Shown here in pieces: positions 2,481-59,994 of a stretch of 64,000 nt of DNA. Below the pieces are notes generated by a model, which saw only the letters and a list, made by a program, of their open reading frames with translations, was not told the origin of the DNA and did not search any database. The position numbers were made by a program, and so were the translations under genes. Origin of the DNA: Histomonas meleagridis (Eukaryota; Parabasalia; Tritrichomonadida; Dientamoebidae); contig WSYJ01000149.1 in NCBI GenBank assembly GCA_020186115.1, positions 1,364,001-1,428,000 of the forward strand, written 5' to 3'. Position 1 is the first letter of the stretch. Every line of letters starts with the position of its first letter.

Positions 2481-3337
2481 TATATTTTGCTCATTATCAA
2501 CCAAAAGAAGAAAACCAAAACCATTTTTCATTTGGGTCTAATAGAAATGATCCAAAAGAAAAATACTTTTTGGAAAATTATGAAGAACTTTCAAAGAATG
2601 ATTGGGAGCTTCATAAGAAATATATTAAAGAAGGAGTTAATCCAAATGAAACTGCGAAAATCATTCGAAATGATGAAATAGAAAAACTTCAAGAAATATC
2701 ATCACAAATAAAATTTGATTTTAACCAAACAATCGAACCATCATTTTATGAAAGATGTTCATATATTAATGCAGAAAATGTATCTTTAATTGATTATGCA
2801 GCATTCTTTGGATCAATTAAATGTTTTAAATATTTACTTGTAAATAATGCAAATGTAGAAAACACAGGTAAATATGCAATTGCAGGTGGAAATGAAGAAA
2901 TCATTCATTTATGTGAACAAAATCATTCATCATTTGAAGGTGCATATAAAACAGCAATTGAATTTCATCAAAATGATATCTTTAAATATCTTTATGAAAA
3001 TAAATTAGAAAAAATACAACCAAAGTCAAAAATTTCTAAAGTCACACATTATTTGGTAGATTTTTGTATTCAAAAAGATAATTATGAAATTTTAGCATTT
3101 TTGGCAGAAAAAGGAATTAATATTAATGCTTGTAATATAAATGAATCAGCAAGAAATGGAAATTTATATCTCGTTAAAAATTTCCTTCAAAATAATCAAA
3201 TTCCAAAAATTATTTTGCCATTTGCTTCAGAATCAGAAAATGTTGAACTCGTGAATTATGTTTTAGAACAAAAAGGAATTGATATTAATGCAAAAAATAT
3301 TCATTTGAATAACTTGGAATATGTTTTAATTTTTTGA

Positions 3338-4335
3338 AATATGTTTTAATAATTTGCAACAGCACTTCATATAGCAGTTAGAAATAATAATATAGAAATA
3401 GTAAAATTACTTTTAGATAAAGAAGGAATTGATGTTAATGCAAAATATATTCATTTGAATAATTTGGAATATGTTTTAATAATTTTATATATGTTTTAAT
3501 AATTTAAAATCTGTATTAATAATTTGAAACAGCACTTCATATAGCAGTTAGAAATAATAATATAGAAATAGTAAAATTACTTTTAGATAAAGGAATTGAT
3601 GTTAATGCAAAATATATTCATTTGAATACCTTGGAATATGTTTTAATAATTTGGAATATGTTTTAATAATTTGGAATATGTTTTAATAACTTGGAATATG
3701 TTTTAATAATTTGGAATATGTTTTAATAATTTGAAACAGCACTTCATATAGCAGTTAGAAATAATAATATAGAAATAGTAAAATTACTTTTAGATAAAGG
3801 AATTGATGTTAATGAAAAAGATATTCATTTGAATAATTTAGAATATGTTTTAATAATTTTATATATGTTTTAATAATTTATAATATGTTTTAATAATTTG
3901 GAATATGTTTTAATAATTTGCAACAGCACTTCATATAGCAGTTAGAAATAATAATATAGAAATAGTAAAATTACTTTTAGATAAAGGAATTGATGTTAAT
4001 GCAAAATATATTCATTTGAATAATTTGGAATATGTTTTAATAATTTTATATATGTTTTAATAATTTAAAATCTGTATTAATAATTTGAAACAGCACTTCA
4101 TATAGCAGTTAGAAATAATAATATAGAAATAGTAAAATTACTTTTAGATAAAGGAATTGATGTTAATGCAAAATATATTCATTTGAATAACATGGAATAT
4201 GTTTTGATAATTTGATATATGTTTTAATGATTTGAAACAGTACTTCAAATTGCACAACAATTAGGTTACACAGAAATAGTAAATTTACTCCTTGAAAAAA
4301 GTACAAACGAAAATTCTAATTGTCTTTTTCAATAA
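3338..4335 (+). repeat. Spacer-interrupted ankyrin module array of gene A (6 modules)
   Basis: Modules begin at 3359, 3529, 3736, 3923, 4090 and 4237 with ACAGCACTT or a close variant. Each encodes 28-29 residues of an ankyrin repeat (TALHIAVRNNNIEIVKLLLD ... GIDVNAK) without stops. Spacers between modules are 83, 123, 103, 83 and 63 nt by coordinate subtraction, built from variants of TTGGAATATGTTTTAATAAT, and carry stops. The last module (TVLQIAQQLGYTEIVNLLLE) has a distinct tail and its own TAA at 4333-4335. This looks like the 3' part of the same gene, with spacers that must be removed or that have broken it. Confidence 0.8.
3625..3735 (+). repeat. 20-bp tandem repeat inside an ankyrin spacer
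   Basis: The longest spacer of array A contains five head-to-tail copies of a 20-bp unit (TTGGAATATGTTTTAATAAT with single-base variants). The other spacers of the array have fewer and more diverged copies, so spacer length changes by gain or loss of this unit. Confidence 0.8.
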
Positions 4336-12196: not shown

Positions 12197-15100
12197 TTAT
12201 TCGTCAAATATTATTCCTTCTTGTTGTTTAAGTAAATTAATTATTTCAGGATTTCTTGTCAACATAATTGCAATTTCATATTATAAAAATTAACACCAAA
12301 TTAATCGAACGAATATCGTAACATTAAAACAAAAGTCAAAAGGGATAAACAATTATTATCGATATTCAAACAGATATCTTTTTGCTTTATAAGTAATTTT
12401 ACTATTTCGATATTATTATATTGACAAGCGAACATTAAAGGTGTCCAAAATAATAAAAATAAATTCCAATAAATTTATAAAAACTGAAAATATTTCTAAT
12501 AAATTTCATTTTGCGCATTAACATTTGCACCTTTTTCAAGAAGTATTTTAACAACTTCTGTTTGCGCTTGACTTAAATCACCATAAAATGAGTCACGATT
12601 CAACGCCGCGTTCTTAGCAGCAATTTTGGCCATTTTAATTAATTGTTTCTCAAATAAAATAAACAAATACTCAATAATGAAACCAAACCAAAAGCATTAT
12701 AAATAAATTCCAAATATATTATATTAATATGATTCGTATTTAGATCAACTCCTTGACTTTTCATGATCTTATGGATGAAATTAGGTCCCATTTCAGTAAC
12801 TTTTTTACATATTAACATTAATGCTGTATAAAATACATTAAATAAATTCCAAATAACATTTTGAAATTTGAAATGATTTGAATTTATTTTGTTTGCTGCA
12901 TTTACATCAATATCTTCTTTCGTTAAAAGTAATTTTACTATTTCAATGTTTTGATTTTCACATCCATATATTAAAGCTGTATAAAATAATTTCAGTAAAC
13001 TTGATATTTTCATATTAAATGTCAAATCATTATAGTAAATACGTAATAAATTTAAGAAATATTACATATATTAACATCAATATTATCTTGTTCAAGTAAT
13101 AATTTAACGATATTAACAAAATCTTTTTGTGATGCATAAATTAACGGAGTATTAAATTTTTATTATAAATACCAAAACATTTAAAAAAACTAAAAATTTA
13201 ATAAAATTAACACAAAATTATATTAACAAATATTTTGGACATTACAATCTACATTTTGATGCTCGAGTATTAATTTCATAACTACCATTTTGTGCAGCAA
13301 CAATTAAAACTGTTTCAATTAATATATGAAAACTCCGAATATTATGATTAAATACTTTATAAATTAAATAAATATCAAAAATTTTGGGTTTACATTTCGA
13401 ATATTAACATCAATATCTTTTTGTTCAAGAAGTATTTTAGCTACATCAAAACTATTCTTAGCCGAAGCTTCCATTAAAGCAGTCCAAAACAAATTAAATA
13501 AATCCCAAATTTCAAGTTTATACATAAAAAGATTCAAATTAATATCAATATATTATAACAAATACTTCTTGAATTAATATCGATTCCTTCTTTTGATAAA
13601 AGTAATTTTACTATTTCGATGTTATTATTTGTTGATGCTTTCATTAAAGCTGTCCAAAGATTCCCATAAAAACACCAAATTTATTATATTATACATTATA
13701 TTATTCAAATTAACTTCAAATTGTGTATCAAAACGTTTTTCATATTAACATCAATTTTTTCATTATTCAAAAGTAATTTAACAATTTCATTGTTATTATT
13801 CTCAATAGAATACATTAAAGAAGTCCAACATAACAAAAACAATTTTCAAATTATATTATAAAAATTTAAATATGCATATAATATATTATCATAAGAATTA
13901 ACATTTATGTTTTCTTGGTCAAGAAGAAGTTTTAATATGTTAATGTTTTTATTTTTTGTTGCAATTATTAAAGCTGTTTCAAATATATTTAATCAATTCC
14001 AAATAATAAATTTAAACTAAAAATTATCAAGTTAATCATTAAGTTAATATTAAAGTAATATTTTGTGCATTAATATCAATGCTTTTATGCTCAAGAAATA
14101 GTTTAACAACATCAAAACTATTATTTTTTACTGCTATTAAAAGAGGAGTTGCAAATAAAATGAACAAATTCCAAAAATTTTACTTAAACGTCAAATAAAA
14201 TTTATAATTTTTTCTTATATTCATATCAATGTTCTTATTTTCTAAAAGCATTTTAATAATTTCATTTTGATTATTCATACAAGCAAACAATAAAGCCGAA
14301 TAAAATTATTTTAATAAACTCCATATAATTAATAAAAACATTAAATCATTCGAAGTTACAACTTTAGCATTAATATCAATTTCTTCTTTTTCAAGGAATA
14401 ATTTAACAATTTCTTTATGACCTTCAATAATTGCTATCATTAAAGCAGTATAAAAACATTGAAATAAACACCAAATTATAATATCAAATTTTATGTTAAT
14501 ATTAAAAATATTTTTAGCATTAATATCAATATCTTTTTGTTGAAGAAGTAATTTTACTACTTCAATGTTATTCTTCATAACAGCAAACATTAATGGTGTG
14601 AAAAATATTTTGAATAAATACCAAAAAACTTGTTAAAACAGAAAATTATTAAAATTAATATAAAATAAATCAAATAAAGATCTCTCTTATTAACATCATC
14701 TCCTTTTTCAAGAAGTAATTTAACAATTTCGACATAACCATTTTGATTTGAATTTGGAACTAATAATTTAATAAATTTAAATGAATTTTTTTATCAGATG
14801 TTTTATAAATTTTATCTTCAATGAAACCAGTATTAATTGGTGTACCTTTAGCACATGCATAAATAAGTGCTGTAAAAAGAAAACTTAATAAATTCCAAAA
14901 ATTATATTTGGTCACAAAAACATTAAAAGAAACTAAAAATATTATAATACAACATCAACTGTTTTAATATCAATTTCTTTCTCAAGAAATGATTTTATTA
15001 TATTAATATTACCACGAGTGCATGCAATAAGGAACGCTGTTAGGAATAATTAAAATATGTTCCAAATATTAATTTGATATATCAAATATATAAAATTTAC

Positions 15101-16066
15101 ACAAATAAAAATAAATAAACGTTTTTTATATGTACATTAATTCCTTCTTGTTCAAGAAGTAATTTAACTATTTCTGTACAACCATTAAAAGATGCATTCA
15201 TAAGTGCTGTTTCAAATAATTTAAATAATTTCCAAATATTATTTTGAAATACTAAATTATTAATATAAATTTTAAACAAAACAAATAAATATCTTTAGCA
15301 TTGGTATCAATTCCTTCTTGTTCAAGAAGTAATTTAACTATTTCTGTATGACCATTTGAAGATGCTAATGTAAGTGCTGTATCAAATAATTTAAATAATT
15401 TCCAAACATTATTTTGAAATAGAAAATTATTAAAATAAATATTAAATAAAACAAATAAATATCTTTAGCATTAATATCAATTCCTTCTTGTTCAAGAAGT
15501 AATGAAACTATTTCTGTATGACCTTTCCAAGATGCCCAAATAAGTGCCGAAAAAATAATTTAAATAATTTCCAAATATTATTTTGAAATAGAAAATTATT
15601 AAAATAAATATAAAATAAAACAAATAAATATCTTTAGCATTAATATCAATTCCTTTTTGTTCAAGAAGTAATTTAACGATTTCTATATGACCGTAATTAG
15701 ATGCAAAAATAAGTGCTGTTTGAAATAATTAAAATAATTTTCGAATATTATTTTGAAATATTAAATTATTAAAATAAATATCAAATAAAACAAATAAATA
15801 TCTTTAGCATTAATATCAATTCCTTCTTGTTCAAGAAGTAATTTAACGATTTCTATATGACCGTAATTAGATGCAAAAATAAGTGCTGTATAAAATAATT
15901 TAAATAATTTCCAAATATTATTTTGAAATATCAAATTATTAAAATAAATTTTAAATAAAATAAATAAATATCTTTAGCATTAATATCAATTCCTTCTTGT
16001 TCAAGAAGTAATTTAACTATTTCTGTATGACCTTTTTGAGATGCTCTCATAAGTGCTGTCCAAAAT
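12197..16066 (-). repeat. Spacer-interrupted ankyrin module array of gene B (about 22 modules)
   Basis: Downstream of the gene B reading frame lie about 22 ankyrin modules spaced roughly 150-170 bp apart. The first six or seven (about 15.1-16.07 kb) are almost identical in both module (TAL..AS..GHTEIVKLLLE ... GIDINAK) and spacer. Those further 3' are progressively diverged (for example TPLMFACQYNNIEIVKLL near 12.4 kb). The last module (IAIMLTRNPEIINLLKQQEG) ends in a TAA at 12197-12199. Most spacers carry frame changes or stops; a few are in frame (near 14.5 and 12.85 kb). One module near 15545 has a 1-bp deletion at its start. Confidence 0.8.
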
Positions 16067-16100
16067 AATTTAAATAATTTCCAAATATTATTTTGAAATA

Positions 16101-17477
16101 TCAAATTATTAAAATAAATATTAAATAAAACAAACAAATATCTTTAACATTAATATCAATTCCTTTTTGTTCTAAAGCAAATTGAACACTTTCTATATTA
16201 CCCGATTGTGAAAAATTGACTAAAAGATTTTTTGGAAATTGATGATTTCGTAGTAAATATTTAACTAATAATAAGTTTCCTTCTTTTGATGAATTTTTTA
16301 TAATAGAATCATCCATATGTATTCCTTCTTCTTCATTGAAAAATGAAAAAATTTCATAGTTTCCACTACTTATACAAGTTTCGCATAATATTTTCAGCTT
16401 TTCTGCTCTTATCTCATCAGGAGACTTCATATTCTTTTGTATATTCATTGGTTGATTCATAAAATTACCAAATAACCCAAAAACAGGCAACTTATTTCCA
16501 AACATTGAAAATTGATTTGTTGGAACTTGTTTCGGTTCTTCTTGATCAAGTTTTTCGATTTTATTATTATAAATATATTTAAAGATATCATTTTTGTGGA
16601 ATTTTATTGCTGTTTCACATGCGCCATCAAATGAACAATTGTTTTGTTCGCACATTTTAATTATTTCAATGTTTCCACTTGCAACGGCATATTTCCCGAC
16701 GTTTGTAGTTTTAGCTCCATTCAAAAGCAAATATTTGAAGCATTTTATTGATCCAAAAAATGCTGCATAATCAATTAATGAAACATTTATTTGATTAATG
16801 AATGAACATCTTTCATAAAGTGATGGATCAATTGTTTGGTTAAAATCAAAATTTGGATGTGATGATATTTCTTGAAGTTTTTCTATTTCGTCATTTCGAA
16901 TTATCTTTGTAATTTCATTCGGATTATGTCCTTCTTCAATTAATTTCTTATGAAGTTCCCAATCATTTGCTTTAAGTTTTTCAATATTTGCATCGAATAT
17001 TTTTTCGATCTTCGTAAGCGTAGGATCTCTGTTGAATACAGTTGATTTTATTTTGTTACGATGTATAAAATAAGATGAGCATATGGATTTAGATTTATTT
17101 TCGTCAATTATCCCTTTGCTAATCATTTTCTCAACTAAATAAAGTTGTTCTTGTGTATAAGGAGACTTGTAAATTAAATAGTTAGAAAATATTTTTAAGA
17201 TTTTAGCTTTATCATTATCTTTGTTTATTTGCTCTTCTTTTGATTGGAGTGATTCTAAATATTTGAAATATATGTCACTAACACATTTGGTTGAAACAAA
17301 TGAAGAATAAACTAATATAGATATGGCAACATTATATGAATAGATAAAATCGGGTTCAATAAGTTTCATTGTTTCTTCAACTGAAGCATTAAGATTTTCT
17401 TCATTTAATTTAAATATGATTTGAGTGATTGCAATTAGCTTTTGCATCTCAGTGGATTGATTGTTAGCTCCTTCCAT
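16101..17477 (-). CDS. DUF3447/ankyrin-repeat protein gene B, N-terminal reading frame
   Basis: This open frame encodes about 458 residues: an all-helical N-terminal region (about residues 1-130), a linker with NDWELHKKLIEEGHNPNE, the DUF3447-like block (ERCSFIN, LIDYAAFFGSIKCFKYLL, KYAVASGNIEIIKMCEQNN), a Gln/Pro/Phe-rich insert (VPTNQFSMFGNKLPVFG), and ankyrin units up to GIDINVKDI, where the first spacer begins and a stop follows. The start is the ATG at 17477; two upstream codons are TTG and TTC. It is the best-preserved member of the family here. If spacers are removed from the transcript, the protein continues through about 22 more ankyrin repeats to 12197. Such proteins are abundant in trichomonads; their partners are not known. 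Confidence 0.85.
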   Translation of the reverse strand: MEGANNQSTEMQKLIAITQIIFKLNEENLNASVEETMKLIEPDFIYSYNVAISILVYSSFVSTKCVSDIYFKYLESLQSKEEQINKDNDKAKILKIFSNYLIYKSPYTQEQLYLVEKMISKGIIDENKSKSICSSYFIHRNKIKSTVFNRDPTLTKIEKIFDANIEKLKANDWELHKKLIEEGHNPNEITKIIRNDEIEKLQEISSHPNFDFNQTIDPSLYERCSFINQINVSLIDYAAFFGSIKCFKYLLLNGAKTTNVGKYAVASGNIEIIKMCEQNNCSFDGACETAIKFHKNDIFKYIYNNKIEKLDQEEPKQVPTNQFSMFGNKLPVFGLFGNFMNQPMNIQKNMKSPDEIRAEKLKILCETCISSGNYEIFSFFNEEEGIHMDDSIIKNSSKEGNLLLVKYLLRNHQFPKNLLVNFSQSGNIESVQFALEQKGIDINVKDICLFYLIFILII

Positions 17478-18048
17478 GAACAAAAAGTAAAACTAACCGA
17501 CCAAGGCACCACTTTTCTATAGAAATATTCTGTTGCTTTTGTATGGAGAACTCCTTTGTGTTGTGCTATCGTTTCTAAAACAGTTCATTTGTTGATTCAC
17601 ACCTTGCATTGAAATATTTCAAAAATATTGTTTAAACAAACGAATTCATACAAAAAAGCATAAAAACCGTTATTTTCAGAGCATCGTTTACTATCATTGG
17701 AATTCCAATGATTCATTCAATTCTATTGCAATTTGCAACATGATAAAAATCAAAATAGTGAAACACCATAGATCAAGATTGCATGTGAGTCAATATAACA
17801 ACGGATTTCAAACTTCAAAATTCAATTTCTTCAGTATAAAATAGTTTAAGAATTGATAGGAAATATAATAAATTTTTTTAATCATGTTACTGCAATATAA
17901 TCGCAAGCTAAAAGATAGATAATTTTAATTTGTAATTTTGTTTATTGAACTTCATCACCAAAGAACTAAGAAGTAAATACTATGCTTCTACATTAATATA
18001 TTGATGAAAAAAGAAAAATTTAAAAAAAATTACTTTGTTTTATATGTT
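17478..18048. other. Intergenic, no gene recognised
   Basis: AT-rich DNA between gene B (5' end) and the 3' end of the BspA-like fragment. No ORF or repeat of note was seen. Confidence 0.5.
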
Positions 18049-36776: not shown

Positions 36777-37928
36777 ATGATCGTTTCTATAATTTTTATG
36801 GACATTCCTCCTCCACCTCCTCCACCAAGTCCATCAGTTTTGCAACTCGTTCCTGATGAAGCTCTTGCAATTGAAAAGTTGTTTTTAGAATTAAATGAAA
36901 ATAATCTCGAATTAATTTTTCAGAAAGTTTCAAAAGTATTAGAAGTTCCACCAAGTTGTCCTTTACTCTATGAATTTTATATTACTCAGTGTATTTATAT
37001 GGCTTATTTTACGCAAAATAAAGATGCAAAATTATACATTTCATTTTTAAACTTGTTATCAAATACAAAAAATATAAGTTTTTCAAAACTACTTAAGGTA
37101 TTAACCATTTATCTTTACCTAAAAAATACAAGTGAATCAGAATGTCTTCTTAACGAAATGATCGACCATAAAATGATACCTTCAAATCTTTATTATTATT
37201 TAAAAATTATAAATAAAGAAAACAAAGAAAATCAGAAAGAAAATCATATATTGGAGATTCTTCGAAATGATAATTTAGAAGAATTACAAGAAATGTCAAC
37301 GCAAAATAAATTTGACTTCAATCAAACAATTGAACCATCACATTATGAAAAACATTCATTTGTTAATCATAAAAATGTTTCATTAATTGATTTTTGTGCA
37401 TTTTATAAGTCAATTAAATGTTTTAAGTTTTTATTAATTAATGGATCAAATGTTAAAAATACATTAAAATATGCGATTGCAGGCGGAAATTTAGAAATTA
37501 TTCACTTATGCATACAAAATAATTCGACTATTAGCTATGTATTAGAAACAGCAATTCAATTTCATCGAAATGACGTTTTTTATTATTTTTATGATGAAAG
37601 AAATCAAAAATTTGAAGAAAGAAAAAACTTAATCATTAGCAAAGATTTAAATGAATTAGGAATACAATGCTTAAAACACATTAATTATGAAATTTTATCT
37701 TTTTTAGAGAAAGAAGGTTTATCAAAATTAAATCTTTCACTCCAAGCTGGTGCATTAAGTTTGCATAATCTTCCATTTATACATATATTTTATGAAGGAA
37801 AAATGATTAAAAAAGAACTTTTTTCCCAATTTCTTGGATATGGAAATCCTATAGTAGTGAAATGGCTCATCAAACAAAAAGGAATTAAGATTGAGAATGT
37901 CGATGTTAAATTACATAATTCTATGTGA
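36777..37928 (+). CDS. DUF3447/ankyrin-repeat protein gene D, N-terminal reading frame
   Basis: An open frame of 383 residues. It begins with a Pro-run (MDIPPPPPPPSPSV), has the family's helical N-terminal region, a short linker without the NDWELHKK segment, and the DUF3447-like block (KHSFVNHKNVSLIDFCAFYK, CFKFLLINGSN, KYAIAGGNLEIIHLC), then two ankyrin-like units ending VDVKLHN, where the first spacer and a stop occur. ATGs at 36777 and 36798 are both possible; the second removes an odd hydrophobic start. TTCACTTTTTGATAA lies about 40 bp upstream. If spacers are removed, the protein continues through the six modules to 38878. It is diverged from genes A and B but intact. Confidence 0.8.
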   Translation: MIVSIIFMDIPPPPPPPSPSVLQLVPDEALAIEKLFLELNENNLELIFQKVSKVLEVPPSCPLLYEFYITQCIYMAYFTQNKDAKLYISFLNLLSNTKNISFSKLLKVLTIYLYLKNTSESECLLNEMIDHKMIPSNLYYYLKIINKENKENQKENHILEILRNDNLEELQEMSTQNKFDFNQTIEPSHYEKHSFVNHKNVSLIDFCAFYKSIKCFKFLLINGSNVKNTLKYAIAGGNLEIIHLCIQNNSTISYVLETAIQFHRNDVFYYFYDERNQKFEERKNLIISKDLNELGIQCLKHINYEILSFLEKEGLSKLNLSLQAGALSLHNLPFIHIFYEGKMIKKELFSQFLGYGNPIVVKWLIKQKGIKIENVDVKLHNSM

Positions 37929-38878
37929 TAAATATTTATTTAAAATTTCATTAATTTTTTTGAAAAAGCATTTTTATGGGCATCAAAGTATAATCATGAA
38001 CAATTAATTAAATACTTTTTAAAACATGGAATTGATGTAAATCATAAAGACATTAAATTGTTTTGTTTAATATTTATTTTAATAATTTTTTATCTCAAAA
38101 TAATAATTGGAAATTATTTAAATTATTTAAAACAGCACTTATGAATGCATCTTTTAATGGTCGTACAGAAATAGTTAAATTACTTCTTGAACAAGAAGGA
38201 ATTGATATTAATGCTAAAAATAATATTTATTTTTATTATTTTATGTTTCAAAATAATATTTGGAAATTATTTAAAATATTATGGACAGCACTTATGAATG
38301 CATCTTTTAATGGTCATACAGAAATAGTTAAATTACTTCTTGAACAAGAAGGAATTGATATTAATGCTAAAGATATTTATTTGTTTTATTTAAAATTTAT
38401 TTCAATAATTTTATATTTCAAAATAATATTTGGAAATTATTTAAATTATTTTCGACAGCACTTATGATTGCATCTGAAAATGGTCATACAGAAATAGTTA
38501 AATTACTTCTTGAACAAAAAGAAATTGATATTAATGCTAAAGATATTTATATGTATTATTTAATATTTTTTTTAATAATTTGATATTTCAAAATAATATT
38601 TGGAAATTATTTAAATTATTTCAAACAGCACTTATTAGAGCATCTTATAAAGGTTATACAGAAATAGTTAAATTACTTCTTGAACAAGTAGGAATTGATA
38701 TTAATGCTAAAAATATTTATTTGTTTTATTTTATATTTATTTTAATAATTTAATATTTCCAAATAATAATTGGAAATTATTTAAATTATTTCAAACAGCA
38801 CTTATGAGAGCATCTCAATTTGGTTATACAGAAATAGTTAAATTACTACGTGAATACAAAGGAAATGATATTAAATAA
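37929..38878 (+). repeat. Spacer-interrupted ankyrin module array of gene D (6 modules)
   Basis: The first module is diverged (EKAFLWASKYNHEQLIKYFL, near 37.97 kb). The next five start with ACAGCACTTAT at 38132, 38285, 38455, 38628 and 38795. Modules are 87 nt each, and the last (84 nt) ends in TAA at 38876-38878. The spacers between these five are 66, 83, 86 and 80 nt; only the 66-nt one stays in frame. Spacer sequences closely match those of arrays B and C (TTTCAAAATAATATTTGG and AAATTATTTAAATTATTT). Confidence 0.85.
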
Positions 38879-44791: not shown

Positions 44792-47700
44792 GTGAATAAT
44801 AAAAGCAATCATCCGGCACGAAAAAACACATCACCAATTGATAATGGTTTTGGTAGAACAATATTTTTCAATTCATCATTTGCATCAAACAATAATACTA
44901 ACAAACGATTAACAGTAGCACCACCACCTATAACATCATTTGTAAATAATAATAACACAAATAATAACACGAATAAACCATTAACAGTAGCACCACCACC
45001 TATAACATCATTTGTAACAAATAATAACACAAATAATAATACGAATAAACCATTAACAGTAGCACCGCCACCTATAACATCATTTGTAACAAATAATAAT
45101 AACACAAATAATAACACGAATAAACCATTAACAGTAGCACCACCACCTATAACATCATTTGTAACAAATAATAATAACACAAATAAACCATTAACAGTAG
45201 CACCACCACCTATAACATCATTTGTAAATAATAATAATAACACGAATAAACCATTAACAGTAGCACCACCACCTATAACATCATTTGTAAATAATAATAA
45301 TAATACGAATAATAACACGAATAAACCATTAACAGTAGCACCGCCACCTATAACATCATTTGTAACAAATAATAATAACACAAATAATAACACGAATAAA
45401 CCATTAACAGTAGCACCACCACCTATAACATCATTTGTAAAAAATAATAATAACACAAATAATAATACGAATAAACCATTAACAGTAGCACCGCCACCTA
45501 TAACATCATTTGTAACAAATAATAACACAAATAATAACACGAATAAACCATTAACAGTAGCACCGCCACCTATAACATCATATGTAACAAATAATAATAA
45601 CACAAATAAACCATTAACAGTAGCACCACCACCTATAACATCATTTGTAAATAATAATAACACAAATAATAACACGAATAAACCATTAACAGTAGCACCA
45701 CCACCTATAACATCATTTGTAACAAATAATAATAACACAAATAATAACACGAATAAACCATTAACAGTAGCACCACCACCTATAACATCATTTGTAACAA
45801 ATAATAATAACACAAATAAACCATTAACAGTAGCACCACCACCTATAACATCATTTGTAAATAATAATAATAACACAAATAATAACACGAATAAACCATT
45901 AACAGTAGCACCACCACCTATAACATCATTTGTAACAAATAATAATAACACAAATAATAACACGAATAAACCATTAACAGTAGCACCGCCACCTATAACA
46001 TCATTTGTAACAAATAATAATAACACAAATAAATTATTAACAGTAGCACCGCCACCTATAACATCATTTGTAAATAATAATAATACGAATAATAACACGA
46101 ATAAACCATTAACAGTAGCACCACCACCTATAACATCATTTGTAACAAATAATAATAACACGAATAAACCATTAACAGTAGCACCGCCACCTATAACATC
46201 ATTTGTAAATAATAATAATAACACAAATAATAACACGAATAAACCATTAACAGTAGCACCACCACCTATAACATCATTTGTAAATAATAATAATAACACA
46301 AATAATAACACGAATAAACCATTAACAGTAGCACCACCACCTATAACATCATTTGTAACAAATAATAATAACACAAATAAACCATTAACAGTAGCACCAC
46401 CACCTATAACATCATTTGTAACAAATAATAATAACACAAATAATAACACGAATAAACCATTAACAGTAGCACCACCACCTATAACATCATTTGTAACAAA
46501 TAATAATAACACAAATAAACCATTAACAGTAGCACCACCACCTATAACATCATTTGTAAATAATAATAATACGAATAATAACACGAATAAACCATTAACA
46601 GTAGCACCACCACCTATAACATCATTTGTAAATAATAATAATACGAATAATAACACGAATAAACCATTAACAGTAGCACCACCACCTATAACATCATTTG
46701 TAACAAATAATAATAACACAAATAATAACACGAATAAACCATTAACAGTAGCACCACCACCTATAACATCATTTGTAACAAATAATAATAACACAAATAA
46801 TAACACGAATAAACCATTAACAGTAGCACCACCACCTATAACATCATTTGTAACAAATAATAATAACACAAATAATAACACGAATAAACCATTAACAGTA
46901 GCACCACCACCTATAACATCATTTGTAACAAATAATAATAACACAAATAAACCATTAACAGTAGCACCACCACCTATAACATCATTTGTAAATAATAATA
47001 ACACAAATAAACCAGTAACAGTAGCACCACCACCTATAACATCATTTGTAAATAATAATAATACGAATAATAACACGAATAAACCATTAACAGTAGCACC
47101 ACCACCTATAACATCATTTGTAACAAATAATAATAACACGAATAATAACACGAATAAACCATTAACAGTAGCACCGCCACCTATAACATCATATGTAACA
47201 AATAATAATAACACAAATAAACCATTAACAGTAGCACCACCACCTATAACATCATTTGTAAATAATAATAATAACACAAATAATAACACGAATAAACCAT
47301 TAACAGTAGCACCACCACCTATAACATCATTTGTAACAAATAATAATAACACAAATAATAACACGAATAAACCATTAACAGTAGCACCACCACCTATAAC
47401 ATCATTTGTAACAAATAATAACACAAATAATAACACGAATAAACCATTAACAGTAGCACCGCCACCTATAACATCATATGTAACAAATAATAATAACACA
47501 AATAAACCATTAACAGTAGCACCACCACCTATAACATCATTTGTAAATAATAATAATAGCACAAATAAACCATTAACAGTAGCACCACCACCTATAACAT
47601 CATTTGTAAATAATAATAATACGAATAATAACACGAATAAACCATTAACAGTAGCACCACCACCTATAACATCATTTGTAACAAATAATAATAACACAAA

Positions 47701-48337
47701 TAATAACACGAATAAACCATTAACAGTAGCACCACCACCTATAACATCATTTGTAACAAATAATAATAACACAAATAATAACACGAATAAACCATTAACA
47801 GTAGCACCACCACCTATAACATCATTTGTAACAAATAATAATAACACAAATAATAACACGAATAAACCATTAACAGTAGCACCACCACCTATAACATCAT
47901 TTGTAACAAATAATAATAACACAAATAAACCATTAACAGTAGCACCACCACCTATAACATCATTTGTAAATAATAATAATACGAATAATAACACGAATAA
48001 ACCATTAACAGTAGCACCACCACCTATAACATCATTTGTAACAAATAATAATAACACAAATAAACCATTAACAGTAGCACCACCACCTATAACATCATTT
48101 GTAAATAATAATAACACAAATAAACCAGTAACAGTAGCACCACCACCTATAACATCATTTGTAAATAATAATAACACAAATAAACCATTAACAGTAGCAC
48201 CACCACCTATAACATCATTTGGAACAAATAATAATACAAACAATAATTCAAAAATAACTAAAACAACAACATCTCCAACAAATGGATTTTCATGCATTAT
48301 TATTAATGATACAGAAAATAACAACAAATCCCATTAA
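44792..48337 (+). CDS. Asn/Pro-rich tandem-repeat protein without an ATG start
   Basis: About 1181 codons, almost all a repeat of KPLTVAPPPITSFV joined by variable Asn/Thr linkers (NNNNTN, with or without NNNTN); I count 48 copies by hand. The reading frame has no Met: the first usable codon is GTG at 44792, preceded by ACTCGAAAAAA, which resembles the ACTCAA leader of other genes. The frame upstream is closed by a TAA at 44768. The repeat ends near 48225, and a Thr/Asn-rich stretch leads to TAA at 48335. A Pro/Tyr-rich segment in another frame (to 48632) probably was its C-terminus, so one frameshift is likely. The opposite strand is also open but is hydrophobic repeat and less likely. Function unknown. 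Confidence 0.6.
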   Translation: MNNKSNHPARKNTSPIDNGFGRTIFFNSSFASNNNTNKRLTVAPPPITSFVNNNNTNNNTNKPLTVAPPPITSFVTNNNTNNNTNKPLTVAPPPITSFVTNNNNTNNNTNKPLTVAPPPITSFVTNNNNTNKPLTVAPPPITSFVNNNNNTNKPLTVAPPPITSFVNNNNNTNNNTNKPLTVAPPPITSFVTNNNNTNNNTNKPLTVAPPPITSFVKNNNNTNNNTNKPLTVAPPPITSFVTNNNTNNNTNKPLTVAPPPITSYVTNNNNTNKPLTVAPPPITSFVNNNNTNNNTNKPLTVAPPPITSFVTNNNNTNNNTNKPLTVAPPPITSFVTNNNNTNKPLTVAPPPITSFVNNNNNTNNNTNKPLTVAPPPITSFVTNNNNTNNNTNKPLTVAPPPITSFVTNNNNTNKLLTVAPPPITSFVNNNNTNNNTNKPLTVAPPPITSFVTNNNNTNKPLTVAPPPITSFVNNNNNTNNNTNKPLTVAPPPITSFVNNNNNTNNNTNKPLTVAPPPITSFVTNNNNTNKPLTVAPPPITSFVTNNNNTNNNTNKPLTVAPPPITSFVTNNNNTNKPLTVAPPPITSFVNNNNTNNNTNKPLTVAPPPITSFVNNNNTNNNTNKPLTVAPPPITSFVTNNNNTNNNTNKPLTVAPPPITSFVTNNNNTNNNTNKPLTVAPPPITSFVTNNNNTNNNTNKPLTVAPPPITSFVTNNNNTNKPLTVAPPPITSFVNNNNTNKPVTVAPPPITSFVNNNNTNNNTNKPLTVAPPPITSFVTNNNNTNNNTNKPLTVAPPPITSYVTNNNNTNKPLTVAPPPITSFVNNNNNTNNNTNKPLTVAPPPITSFVTNNNNTNNNTNKPLTVAPPPITSFVTNNNTNNNTNKPLTVAPPPITSYVTNNNNTNKPLTVAPPPITSFVNNNNSTNKPLTVAPPPITSFVNNNNTNNNTNKPLTVAPPPITSFVTNNNNTNNNTNKPLTVAPPPITSFVTNNNNTNNNTNKPLTVAPPPITSFVTNNNNTNNNTNKPLTVAPPPITSFVTNNNNTNKPLTVAPPPITSFVNNNNTNNNTNKPLTVAPPPITSFVTNNNNTNKPLTVAPPPITSFVNNNNTNKPVTVAPPPITSFVNNNNTNKPLTVAPPPITSFGTNNNTNNNSKITKTTTSPTNGFSCIIINDTENNNKSH
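44907..48225 (+). repeat. 48-copy coding minisatellite
   Basis: The core ATTAACAGTAGCACCACCAC plus CTATAACATCATTTGTAA is nearly invariant, with a GCACCG synonymous variant scattered through it. Linkers are built of AAT, AAC, ACA and ACG codons and change length in 3-bp steps. Two units carry CCAGTAACA instead of CCATTAACA in similar contexts, pointing to higher-order duplications. Confidence 0.95.
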
Positions 48338-58612: not shown

Positions 58613-59994
58613 TTATGACTTATAATATTTTTTGATGTCAGTACAAGCTTCTCCTGATTTACTCATAAATAAATGAATTACATCAATTTCGTTGTTTTCA
58701 ATTGCATGCATAAGTGCTGTCTTAAATATTTTAAATAATTTCCAAATATTATTTTGAAATATTAAATTATTAAAATAAAAAATATATATAACAAATAAAT
58801 ATCTTTAACTTTTGCATCAATTTTTTCTTGTTCAAGAAGTAATTTAACTATTTCTGTATAACCTTTTTCTGATGCTATGATAAGTGCTGTTTGAAATATT
58901 TTAAATAATTTCCAAATATTATCATGAAATTTTATATTATTAAAATAAATATCATATAAAATAAAATAATGTTTTTAGCATTAATATCAATTTTTTCATG
59001 TTCAAGAAGTAATATAACAATTTCTTTGTAACCATTTCTAGATGCTTTCATAAGTGCTGTCCAAAATAATTTAAATAATTTCCAAATATTATTTTGAAAT
59101 ATCAAATTATTAAAATAAATTTTAAATAAAACAAATAAATATCTTTAGCATTAATATCAATTCCTTCTTGTTCAAGAAGTAATTTAACTATTTCTATACG
59201 ACCTTTATAAGATGCATACATAAGTGCTGTCCGAAATAATTTAAATAATTTCCTAATATTATTTTGAAATCCAAAATGATTAAAATAAATACAAAATAAA
59301 ATAAATAAATATCTTTAGCATTAATATCAATTCCTTTTTGTTCAAGAAGTAATTGAACTATTTCTGTATTTCCGCTAAAAGATGCTGATATAAGTGCTGT
59401 CCACTATAATTTAAATAATTTCTAAATATTATTTTGAATTTCCAAATTATTAAAATATATTCTAAATAAAACAAATAAATATCTTTAGCATTAATATCAA
59501 TTCCTTTTTGTTCAAGAAGTAATTGAACTATTTCTGTATGACCATTTTCAGATGCTTTAATAAGTGCCGTTTTAAATATTTTAAATAATTTCCAATTATA
59601 ATCCTAAAACTCCAAATTATTATAACATTTTTTAATTAATATCAAAATATATCAGTTTCAGAATTAATATCAATTCCTGGTTGTGCAAGAAGTGCTTTTA
59701 CGATTTCAGTATAACCATGGCGTGATGCCCAATGAAGTGCTGTTTCATTTTTTTTAAATAAATACCAAATATCATAATAAAACATCAAAAATTGAAGAAA
59801 AACATGTTTTGCATTGATATTAAACATTTTATATTTGATTTGCCATTGGATAAATTCTGCGATTTCTTGAGGCATTTGGTGGCATTTTTTTCGAAACAAT
59901 AAAAGCACGTTAATGATACACATAAAGTAGTCAATACTAAAACATTAAATTTCTTAAGCAAAGAATCAAAAAATAATATATTAAAATATTCCAT
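58613..59994 (-). pseudogene. Ankyrin gene C: short N-terminus plus seven spacer-interrupted modules
   Basis: The ATG at 59994 opens MEYFNILFFDSLLKKFNVLV. A slip in an A-run near 59890 shifts the frame to CHQMPQEIAEFIQWQIKYKM, ending NINAK. Seven ankyrin modules follow with starts near 59741, 59571, 59401, 59233, 59061, 58893 and 58724, each joined by the same AT-rich spacer as in arrays B and D. The last module (TALMHAIENNEIDVIHLFMS) ends with its own stop at 58613-58615. No DUF3447 domain is present, unlike the other loci. The first module (TALHWASRHGYTEIVKALLA) is the most diverged. With spacers removed and the A-run corrected this would be a small ankyrin protein; otherwise it is broken. 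Confidence 0.65.

What the first reader, a model, noticed from the sequence alone, without database searches (positions are those of the whole stretch)
12197..16066. Intron-like spacers without GT-AG ends interrupt every ankyrin module at the same position
At four loci (3338-4335, 12197-16066, 37929-38878, 58613-59750) modules of 28-29 codons alternate with AT-rich spacers. By coordinates, spacers are 83, 123, 103, 83 and 63 nt in array A and 66, 83, 86 and 80 nt in array D. They mostly break the frame or contain stops, while nearly all modules stay open. The last module of each array ends in its own stop, as a real gene end would. The codon just before ACAGCACTT varies freely as a whole codon (TGG, CAA, GAA, TAT, TCG, GAT, AAG) beside an invariant TTATTT, which suits the variable third residue of an ankyrin repeat. 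Keeping 9 nt after the last Lys codon and 6 nt before ACA gives a 33-residue period everywhere. The only AG is in ACAG, the GT is absent in some spacers, and GT-AG removal gives modules that are not multiples of three. This may be a new intron class, a DNA-level excised element, or a silent module archive used for gene conversion.
Basis: partly seen in the sequence, partly recalled or inferred. Interest (0 to 1): 0.92.

Follow-up and report, generated by a model that had tools for sequence, protein, structure and literature searches.

The report
17-base inserts between single ankyrin codons
In a poultry parasite's genome, many ankyrin-protein loops are broken up, codon by codon, by tiny inserts that are nearly always exactly 17 bases long and that must somehow be left out of the protein, although they lack the marks of the intron types we could test.

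Summary
The window matches the Histomonas meleagridis genome. Each AT-rich spacer is a run of 17-nt elements, [A/G]TTTnTT...TTT, separated by single codons. The common 68-nt spacer reads GAT|17|AAT|17|GAT|17|GGA|17|TGG-ACA-GCA-CTT, i.e. D-N-D-G-W-T-A-L, the canonical ankyrin loop. In 136 distinct 68-nt loops none of 680 micro-exon triplets is a stop (column permutation expects 34, minimum 21), and G4 is conserved. In 42 spacers of 18 further ankyrin loci, 26 lengths are exact multiples of 17. Codon-blind motif fitting puts 54 of 60 elements between codons. Ordinary GTATGT...ACTAACACACAG introns, U2, a U6-like RNA and PRP8 exist in the same genome, yet 0 of 544 elements run GT..AG or carry CTAAC. 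The micro-exon codons x2, x3 and x5 are among the five most variable positions of the repeat. Removal is inferred: RNA-level excision is likeliest (about 0.6), ribosomal skipping possible (about 0.2), decayed genes less so. No transcript data were available. Two of the three NCBI-named Histomonas relatives read end at or just past the first loop.

The parts
12358..16232 (-). array B: ankyrin modules alternating with 19 parsed loops of 17-nt elements
   Evidence: module hits and parse
16101..17483 (-). DUF3447/ankyrin ORF that opens gene B; it runs into the first 17-nt elements and stops there
   Evidence: ORF list; Pfam DUF3447, Ank_4 and Ank_2
16060..16142 (-). loop GAT|17|AAT|17|GAT|17|GGA|17|TGG = D-N-D-G-W (four 17-nt elements)
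   Evidence: parse score 32.2
15890..15972 (-). loop D-K-D-G-Y, four 17-nt elements
15720..15802 (-). loop D-D-N-E-Q, four 17-nt elements
15381..15463 (-). loop D-N-S-G-D, four 17-nt elements
15211..15293 (-). loop D-K-S-G-E, four 17-nt elements
14600..14682 (-). diverged loop D-Y-S-G-F, four 17-nt elements
14450..14512 (-). diverged loop N-K-G-Y, three 17-nt elements and one codon fewer (excess 48 = 3x17-3)
13484..13566 (-). strongly diverged loop S-D-Y-G-W, four 17-nt elements
3296..4236 (+). array A: six loops with 3, 4, 6, 5, 4 and 3 elements of 17 nt; its 20-nt minisatellite step is codon + 17-nt element
38049..38794 (+). array C: five loops (DNFGK, NNYGW, DKYGS, DNDGQ, NYNGQ); the second lacks the first element exactly
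58721..59656 (-). array D: six loops of four 17-nt elements (the one at 59571-59656 parses weakly)
36777..37928 (+). DUF3447 ORF upstream of array C
   Evidence: Pfam
2570..3337 (+). ORF upstream of array A
   Evidence: ankyrin-like end

Best explanation
Shown from sequence: the loops between ankyrin repeats in a large DUF3447/ankyrin family of Histomonas, and in other ankyrin genes of the same genome, are split at codon boundaries by elements that are mostly exactly 17 nt, start [A/G]TTTnTT and end TTT, and leave single-codon or two-codon exons that spell the canonical loop D-x-x-G-x-T-[A/P]-L. Inferred: the elements are absent from the protein. I think they are most likely ultra-short introns cut out of the RNA one after another, with a fixed length imposed by the geometry of the machinery (as for the 15-16-nt introns of Stentor), but with end signals that are neither GT-AG nor AT-AC and with no ACTAAC branch site. 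The same phase throughout keeps the frame whether a micro-exon is kept or skipped. Because the micro-exons encode highly variable loop residues, the split may also help to diversify the binding loop; that last step is speculation.
For: Information dips exactly at triplets x2, x3 and x5 of 136 distinct 68-nt loops, and G4 is GGN in 118 of 136. 0 of 680 micro-exon triplets are stops; shuffling the letters within each column gives 33.7 on average and at least 21 in 2000 runs. With lengths 12-23 nt allowed equally, 17 nt is inferred for 125 of 194 elements in 60 non-68 array spacers and 34 of 66 in 36 spacers of other ankyrin loci; dinucleotide shuffles give means of 8% and 10%. 26 of 42 spacers in 18 loci are exact multiples of 17 (binomial p 7e-22 if independent, which not all are). 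Random-start fitting without codon information places 54 of 60 elements in phase 0, with 24 of 29 micro-exons of 3 or 6 nt; 8 shuffled sets show no preference. The homologous genes L040 and L043 keep 35/51/34 nt at the same three loops although the spacers are only 51-65% identical. x2, x3 and x5 are among the five most variable positions of the repeat. A spliceosome is present: U2, a U6-like RNA, PRP8.
Against: No transcript or peptide was seen. 0 of 544 elements run GT..AG and 0 hold CTAAC, while two ordinary genes here carry GTATGT..ACTAACACACAG introns, so the known spliceosome signals are absent. A search with X-joined modules listed no near-identical joined Histomonas protein: the best 120 of 3876 hits were shown, at most 59% identical. 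No such element was found outside ankyrin genes in about 260 kb. Phase 0 at four different codon boundaries is not required by splicing. A parse without codon information is blurred: phases 51/30/24 in the arrays, and 17 nt for only 16 of 72 elements in the other loci. 6 of 38 window loops parse poorly, 8 of 42 spacers are 17k+1, and two junctions of L035 (excess -8 and 27) do not fit.
Confidence: 0.6

Rival explanations
1. Ribosomal skipping: the 17-nt elements stay in the mRNA and the ribosome jumps exactly 17 nt from one codon boundary to the next, up to four or more times per loop.
For: 54 of 60 elements lie between codons although codon information was not used; fixed length; four different boundaries of one loop are all phase 0; no splice signals.
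Against: The last triplet of the element is TTT in 434 of 544 whatever the codon before take-off, so the peptidyl-tRNA cannot re-pair as in T4 gene 60 (recalled); several hops in a row separated by one codon are without precedent known to me.
Confidence: 0.2
2. Decayed or silent modules: the arrays are pseudogenes or a donor archive; the 17-nt pattern is a relic of formerly removed elements.
For: The search word of the arrays occurs 2565 times; two of three NCBI-named Histomonas relatives end at or just past the first loop; module pairs show dN/dS of 1.0 to 3.5.
Against: 0 stops in 680 micro-exon triplets against 34 expected by column permutation; conserved G4 and T6 next to variable x2, x3, x5, 10 and 13, which looks like diversifying rather than random change; length kept while sequence drifts in further ankyrin loci.
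Confidence: 0.12
3. DNA-level excision (as for ciliate IESs): expressed copies lack the elements.
For: Fixed length and short A+T-rich elements.
Against: No flanking TA or other direct repeat is needed by the parse. Similar modules with uninterrupted loops exist (L035), but no element-free second version of an interrupted array was seen in the fetched sample, and none was searched for genome-wide. No parabasalid is known to me to have a separate somatic genome.
Confidence: 0.03
4. The spacers are simply translated, with frameshifts, as extra loop residues.
For: Some spacers are in frame.
Against: Spacer lengths fall in all three classes modulo 3 (18, 11 and 7 of 36); the 68-nt spacers carry stops at many offsets; variability falls on the single triplets.
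Confidence: 0.03

Closest known systems
15-16-nt spliceosomal introns of Stentor coeruleus (PMC9505925, passages read)
   Same: Ultra-short, A+U-rich, nearly fixed length
   Different: Stentor introns have common major-spliceosome 5' and 3' splice sites and a branch A mostly at position 10 or 11; here the ends are [A/G]T..TTT, the length is 17, and exons are often single codons
Trichomonas type B introns of 23-25 nt (PMC12316389, passages read)
   Same: Parabasalid, very short, T-rich
   Different: Trichomonas introns are GT-AG with a CTAA branch motif, mostly one per gene; here neither signal, and tens per gene
Non-canonical introns of the tunicate Fritillaria (PMC13326754, abstract and outline seen)
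   Different: Not described there as fixed 17-nt units between single codons (only the abstract was seen)
Microexons of animals (PMC8042270, listing only) and stwintrons (PMC9024468, listing only)
   Same: Very short exons; introns that adjoin or nest
   Different: Here runs of up to six near-equal elements with one codon between each
Programmed ribosomal bypassing, T4 gene 60 (PMC11194080, listing only) and mitochondrial byps (recalled)
   Same: Gap inside a reading frame, between codons
   Different: Those need a matching take-off and landing codon (recalled); here the codons do not match

Membership tests
U2-type GT-AG spliceosomal intron | GT at the start and AG at the end | tested here: not met
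   0 of 544 elements do both; 37 start GT, 6 end AG
U2-type GT-AG spliceosomal intron | branch site ACTAAC near the 3' end, as in parabasalids | tested here: not met
   0 of 544 contain CTAAC, although this genome's U2 has GUAGUA and two genes have ACTAACACACAG introns
U2-type GT-AG spliceosomal intron | excised from RNA by the spliceosome | not testable with these tools
   no RNA reads in hand
AT-AC (U12-type) intron | AT..AC ends | tested here: not met
   348 of 544 start AT but only 4 end AC
Programmed ribosomal bypass | matched take-off and landing codons (recalled) | tested here: not met
   the last triplet of the element is TTT in 434 of 544 while take-off codons vary
Programmed ribosomal bypass | element lies exactly between codons | tested here: met
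   54 of 60 in a codon-blind fit of 31 of 42 spacers
Group I/II or bulge-helix-bulge intron | catalytic or folded core | tested here: inconclusive
   only the length was looked at: 17 nt is shorter than either core as I recall them; no fold was run
Ankyrin repeat loop D-x-x-G-x-T-[A/P]-L | codons left beside the elements give this loop | tested here: met
   136 loops: D1 is D or N in 121, G4 is G in 118; window

The most novel reading that the evidence does not exclude
A codon-phased removal system unrelated to GT-AG splicing, probably acting at more than ten thousand places in one genome, takes out 17-nt units one by one (in RNA, or by ribosomal skipping). The single-codon exons it leaves are hypervariable residues of ankyrin loops, so that inclusion or skipping of one codon at a time could diversify a receptor-like family.
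Probability: 0.2. Interest if true: 0.98.

Novelty: categorically new. Interest (0 to 1): 0.93.

Why it matters
If the elements are removed, this genome, reported as having 573 introns and at most one per gene (PMC8529796, passages), carries on the order of ten thousand or more intervening sequences of one near-fixed length without GT-AG ends (rough extrapolation), and deposited DUF3447/ankyrin models may often stop at the first loop (two of the three read do). It would give a new, testable answer to how short and how signal-poor an intron can be, and whether removal can be tied to the reading frame. It would also uncover a hidden, highly diversified ankyrin repertoire in a parasite. A single RT-PCR or a realignment of existing RNA reads would decide between the main explanations.

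Tried and rejected
Rejected: one intron per spacer with GT-AG ends; a 17-nt length rule as a reading-frame artefact (17 is 2 mod 3 and the lengths take all residues); a boundary shifted one base to the left (it would free the third codon letter, yet no stop occurs; chance 7.5e-4, 3.4e-4 and 1.5e-4 at x2, x3 and G4, no power at D1); 17-nt elements in other genes (0 bridges of two 60-codon frames with the strict motif outside masked ankyrin stretches, in 21 sources, the window and L012-L031, 260 kb; 1 bridge each for 16, 18 and 20 nt). The plain stop count at other offsets (892 of 10336) is a weak control: 673 of the 892 lie at 8 offsets fixed by the consensus, and 13 of 76 other offsets also have none; the column permutation replaces it. 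A looser bridging scan was dominated by the arrays and led nowhere. An early idea of spacers stacked without exons between them was dropped when the micro-exons were seen. Search for spliced Histomonas products: none among the 120 hits listed, inconclusive. Literature: the listings showed no title that reports 17-nt introns in parabasalids or ankyrin-loop introns in Histomonas; the library is open-access only, and subscription papers were not searched.

Full report
What the window is. The genome that holds the window has 43,276,120 bases, and the window has 27.5% G+C. One of its contigs is 3,384,422 bases long, the length given for the largest contig of the virulent Histomonas meleagridis assembly (PMC8529796, passages). 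Three NCBI-named H. meleagridis proteins are among the relatives of the window's ORF. The ORFs that open arrays B and C are DUF3447/ankyrin proteins. At least 150 DUF3447 places were scored genome-wide, the cap of the search.

Observation. The arrays are real and common: 1318 + 1247 exact matches to TTATTTNNNACAGCACTT, 0 for the reversed control. In 260 kb of this genome (the window plus stretches chosen around such matches), module searches and the spacing of neighbouring modules gave a sharp mode. A second pass that added eleven further loci, and counted length beyond an uninterrupted repeat, gave 153 junctions at 68 nt, 12 at 51, 8 at 48 and 21 at 0, i.e. uninterrupted, with a scatter of other lengths.

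The length rule. Other ankyrin genes of the genome hold both uninterrupted loops (DVDG, DENG, DNDG) and short spacers. Their canonical residues fix the spacer length without assuming a boundary. In 42 spacers of 18 loci, measured between hand-set anchor peptides, the lengths are 14, 17 (8 times), 18 (2), 19, 34 (13), 35 (3), 37, 40, 48, 49, 51 (5), 52 (2), 54, 64 and 69. 26 of 42 are exact multiples of 17, 8 of 42 are one longer, and no other modulus from 5 to 30 shows such an excess. I chose the anchors by eye; loops without clear anchors in the same loci were not measured. Not all loci are independent. L040 and L043 are homologous (45% identity over 242 residues in one frame, stops as X); their spacers are 51-65% identical and agree in length (35, 51, 34).

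The anatomy. The 68-nt spacer is four 17-mers around single codons: GAT ATTTATTTGTTTTATTT AAT ATTTATTTTAATAATTT GAT ATTTCAAAATAATATTT GGA AATTATTTAAATTATTT TGG ACA GCA CTT. In 136 distinct copies column information drops at x2, x3 and x5 and is high in the flanking TTT and ATTT; G4 is GGN in 118 of 136; D1 is D or N in 121 of 136. None of 680 triplets at D1, x2, x3, G4 and x5 is a stop, although their columns would allow 33.7 on average and at least 21 in 2000 permutations. At the other offsets of the same sequences 892 of 10336 triplets are stops, but 673 of these sit at eight fixed offsets and 13 of 76 offsets have none, so that comparison is weak. A parser that knew the end motif and the codon rule, with lengths 12-23 nt equally allowed, recovered 17 nt in 125 of 194 elements (60 array spacers not of the 68 class, a few non-loop rows included) and 34 of 66 (36 spacers of other loci); shuffles gave means of 8% and 10% and maxima of 14% and 19%. 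Without codon information, 17 nt and 3-nt exons were still the main classes in the arrays (105 of 198 elements; 77 of 139 internal exons) but phase from D1 was blurred (51, 30 and 24); in the other loci 17 nt came out for 16 of 72 elements, 15 of these 16 in phase 0.

Phase. With 17 nt fixed, exon length free and no codon information, leave-one-locus-out fitting placed 53 of 60 elements between codons from seeds at the G4/x5 boundary and 54 of 60 in the best of 40 random starts, with 24 of 29 micro-exons of 3 or 6 nt. Eight shuffled sets gave no preference (phase 0 in 12-24 of 60). The fit used 31 of 42 spacers; the 11 dropped differ from 17k by a number that is not a multiple of 3. The motif from the seeded fit is G or A at position 1 (58 of 60), T at 2 (57), T at 6 and 7 (58, 57) and T at 15-17 (56, 57, 55).

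In the window, a parser that prefers 17 nt reads 38 loops with 145 elements, 139 of exactly 17 nt; one row (3134-3208) inside the DUF3447 part was dropped, and 6 loops score below zero. Array A grows by 20-nt steps, one codon plus one element: its loops hold 3, 4, 6, 5, 4 and 3 elements. Array C has one loop in which the first element is exactly absent (AAT AAT|...). So elements come and go as exact units.

Known splicing in the same genome. A DHHC protein gene (L010) and a protein kinase gene (L011) carry GTATGT ... ACTAACACACAG introns between frames that join in conserved motifs (protein names from my reading of the motifs). That 12-mer is otherwise not enriched: 3 places versus 2 for the control. 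U2 RNA with GUAGUA, a U6-like RNA with ACAGAGA just below the family cut-off and PRP8 are present. The 17-nt elements share none of the intron signals: of 544, 37 start GT, 6 end AG, 0 do both, and 0 contain CTAAC. Letters of the codons x2, x3 and x5 beside the elements vary freely, so no exon signal is visible.

Selection. Among 89 distinct loop-plus-module peptides the five most variable positions are 10, x3, 13, x5 and x2, while T6, A11, I28, N31, K33 and G4 vary little. Module pairs at 92-100% identity have pS 0.021 and pN 0.071 (ratio 3.5), falling to 1.0 at 75-85%; element divergence is 0.05-0.17, near the synonymous level (96 modules, pairs not independent). This suits diversifying surface residues on a kept scaffold. 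Positions 2, 3, 5 and 13 are among those randomised in designed ankyrin libraries (recalled).

Mechanism. Shown: codon-phased, near-fixed-length units inside coding loops. Inferred: they are absent from the protein. Fixed length and A+U richness recall Stentor, where 15- and 16-nt introns dominate and the branch A sits at a fixed place (PMC9505925, passages). Fritillaria shows that a spliceosome can leave the GT-AG rule (PMC13326754, abstract). RNA excision is therefore favoured. Phase 0 at four boundaries of one loop is what a ribosomal mechanism would demand, but it is also explained if micro-exons must be skippable without loss of frame; codon mismatch at take-off and landing speaks against classical bypassing. 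The gene models seen do not contain the arrays: the H. meleagridis record P0005 ends INAQNI at the first loop and P0021 just beyond it, while the third, P0016, ends otherwise. The annotation came from AUGUSTUS trained on a transcriptome (PMC8529796, passages). Relatives, e.g. P0031 (Tritrichomonas foetus) and P0099 (unnamed source), read through canonical loops such as DSKGTTALH and DKNGYTALM in uninterrupted predicted proteins; their DNA was not seen.

Scale. In the sample 85 exact matches of the search word go with 230 spaced junctions; scaled to 2565 genome-wide matches this is about 7,000 junctions and, at 3.8 elements each, of the order of 26,000 elements. The sample was picked around matches, so this is a rough figure only.

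Against this reading: no RNA or peptide evidence; none of the 120 listed hits of the protein search looked like a joined Histomonas product (at most 59% identity); two junctions of L035 (excess -8 and 27) do not fit; 8 of 42 spacers are 17k+1; and no element was found outside ankyrin genes in the 260-kb sample.

Noticed in passing
   Followed up: partly
3296-4236 (+): The loops of array A expand as a 20-nt minisatellite (codon + 17-nt element), giving up to six elements in one loop and extra glycine codons.
   Followed up: yes
L010 and L011: Two ordinary GTATGT..ACTAACACACAG introns, in a DHHC protein gene and a protein kinase gene; the 12-mer is not otherwise enriched in the genome.
   Followed up: partly
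44792-48337 (+) and 44809-48327 (-): Two very long overlapping open frames on opposite strands (1181 and 1172 aa).
   Followed up: no
L032 and L033: Two nearly identical U2 RNA genes in different flanks, on contigs C40 and C120.
   Followed up: no
L035: Ankyrin modules similar to those of the arrays but with uninterrupted loops, and one junction 8 nt shorter than an uninterrupted loop, which does not follow the 17-nt rule.
   Followed up: no
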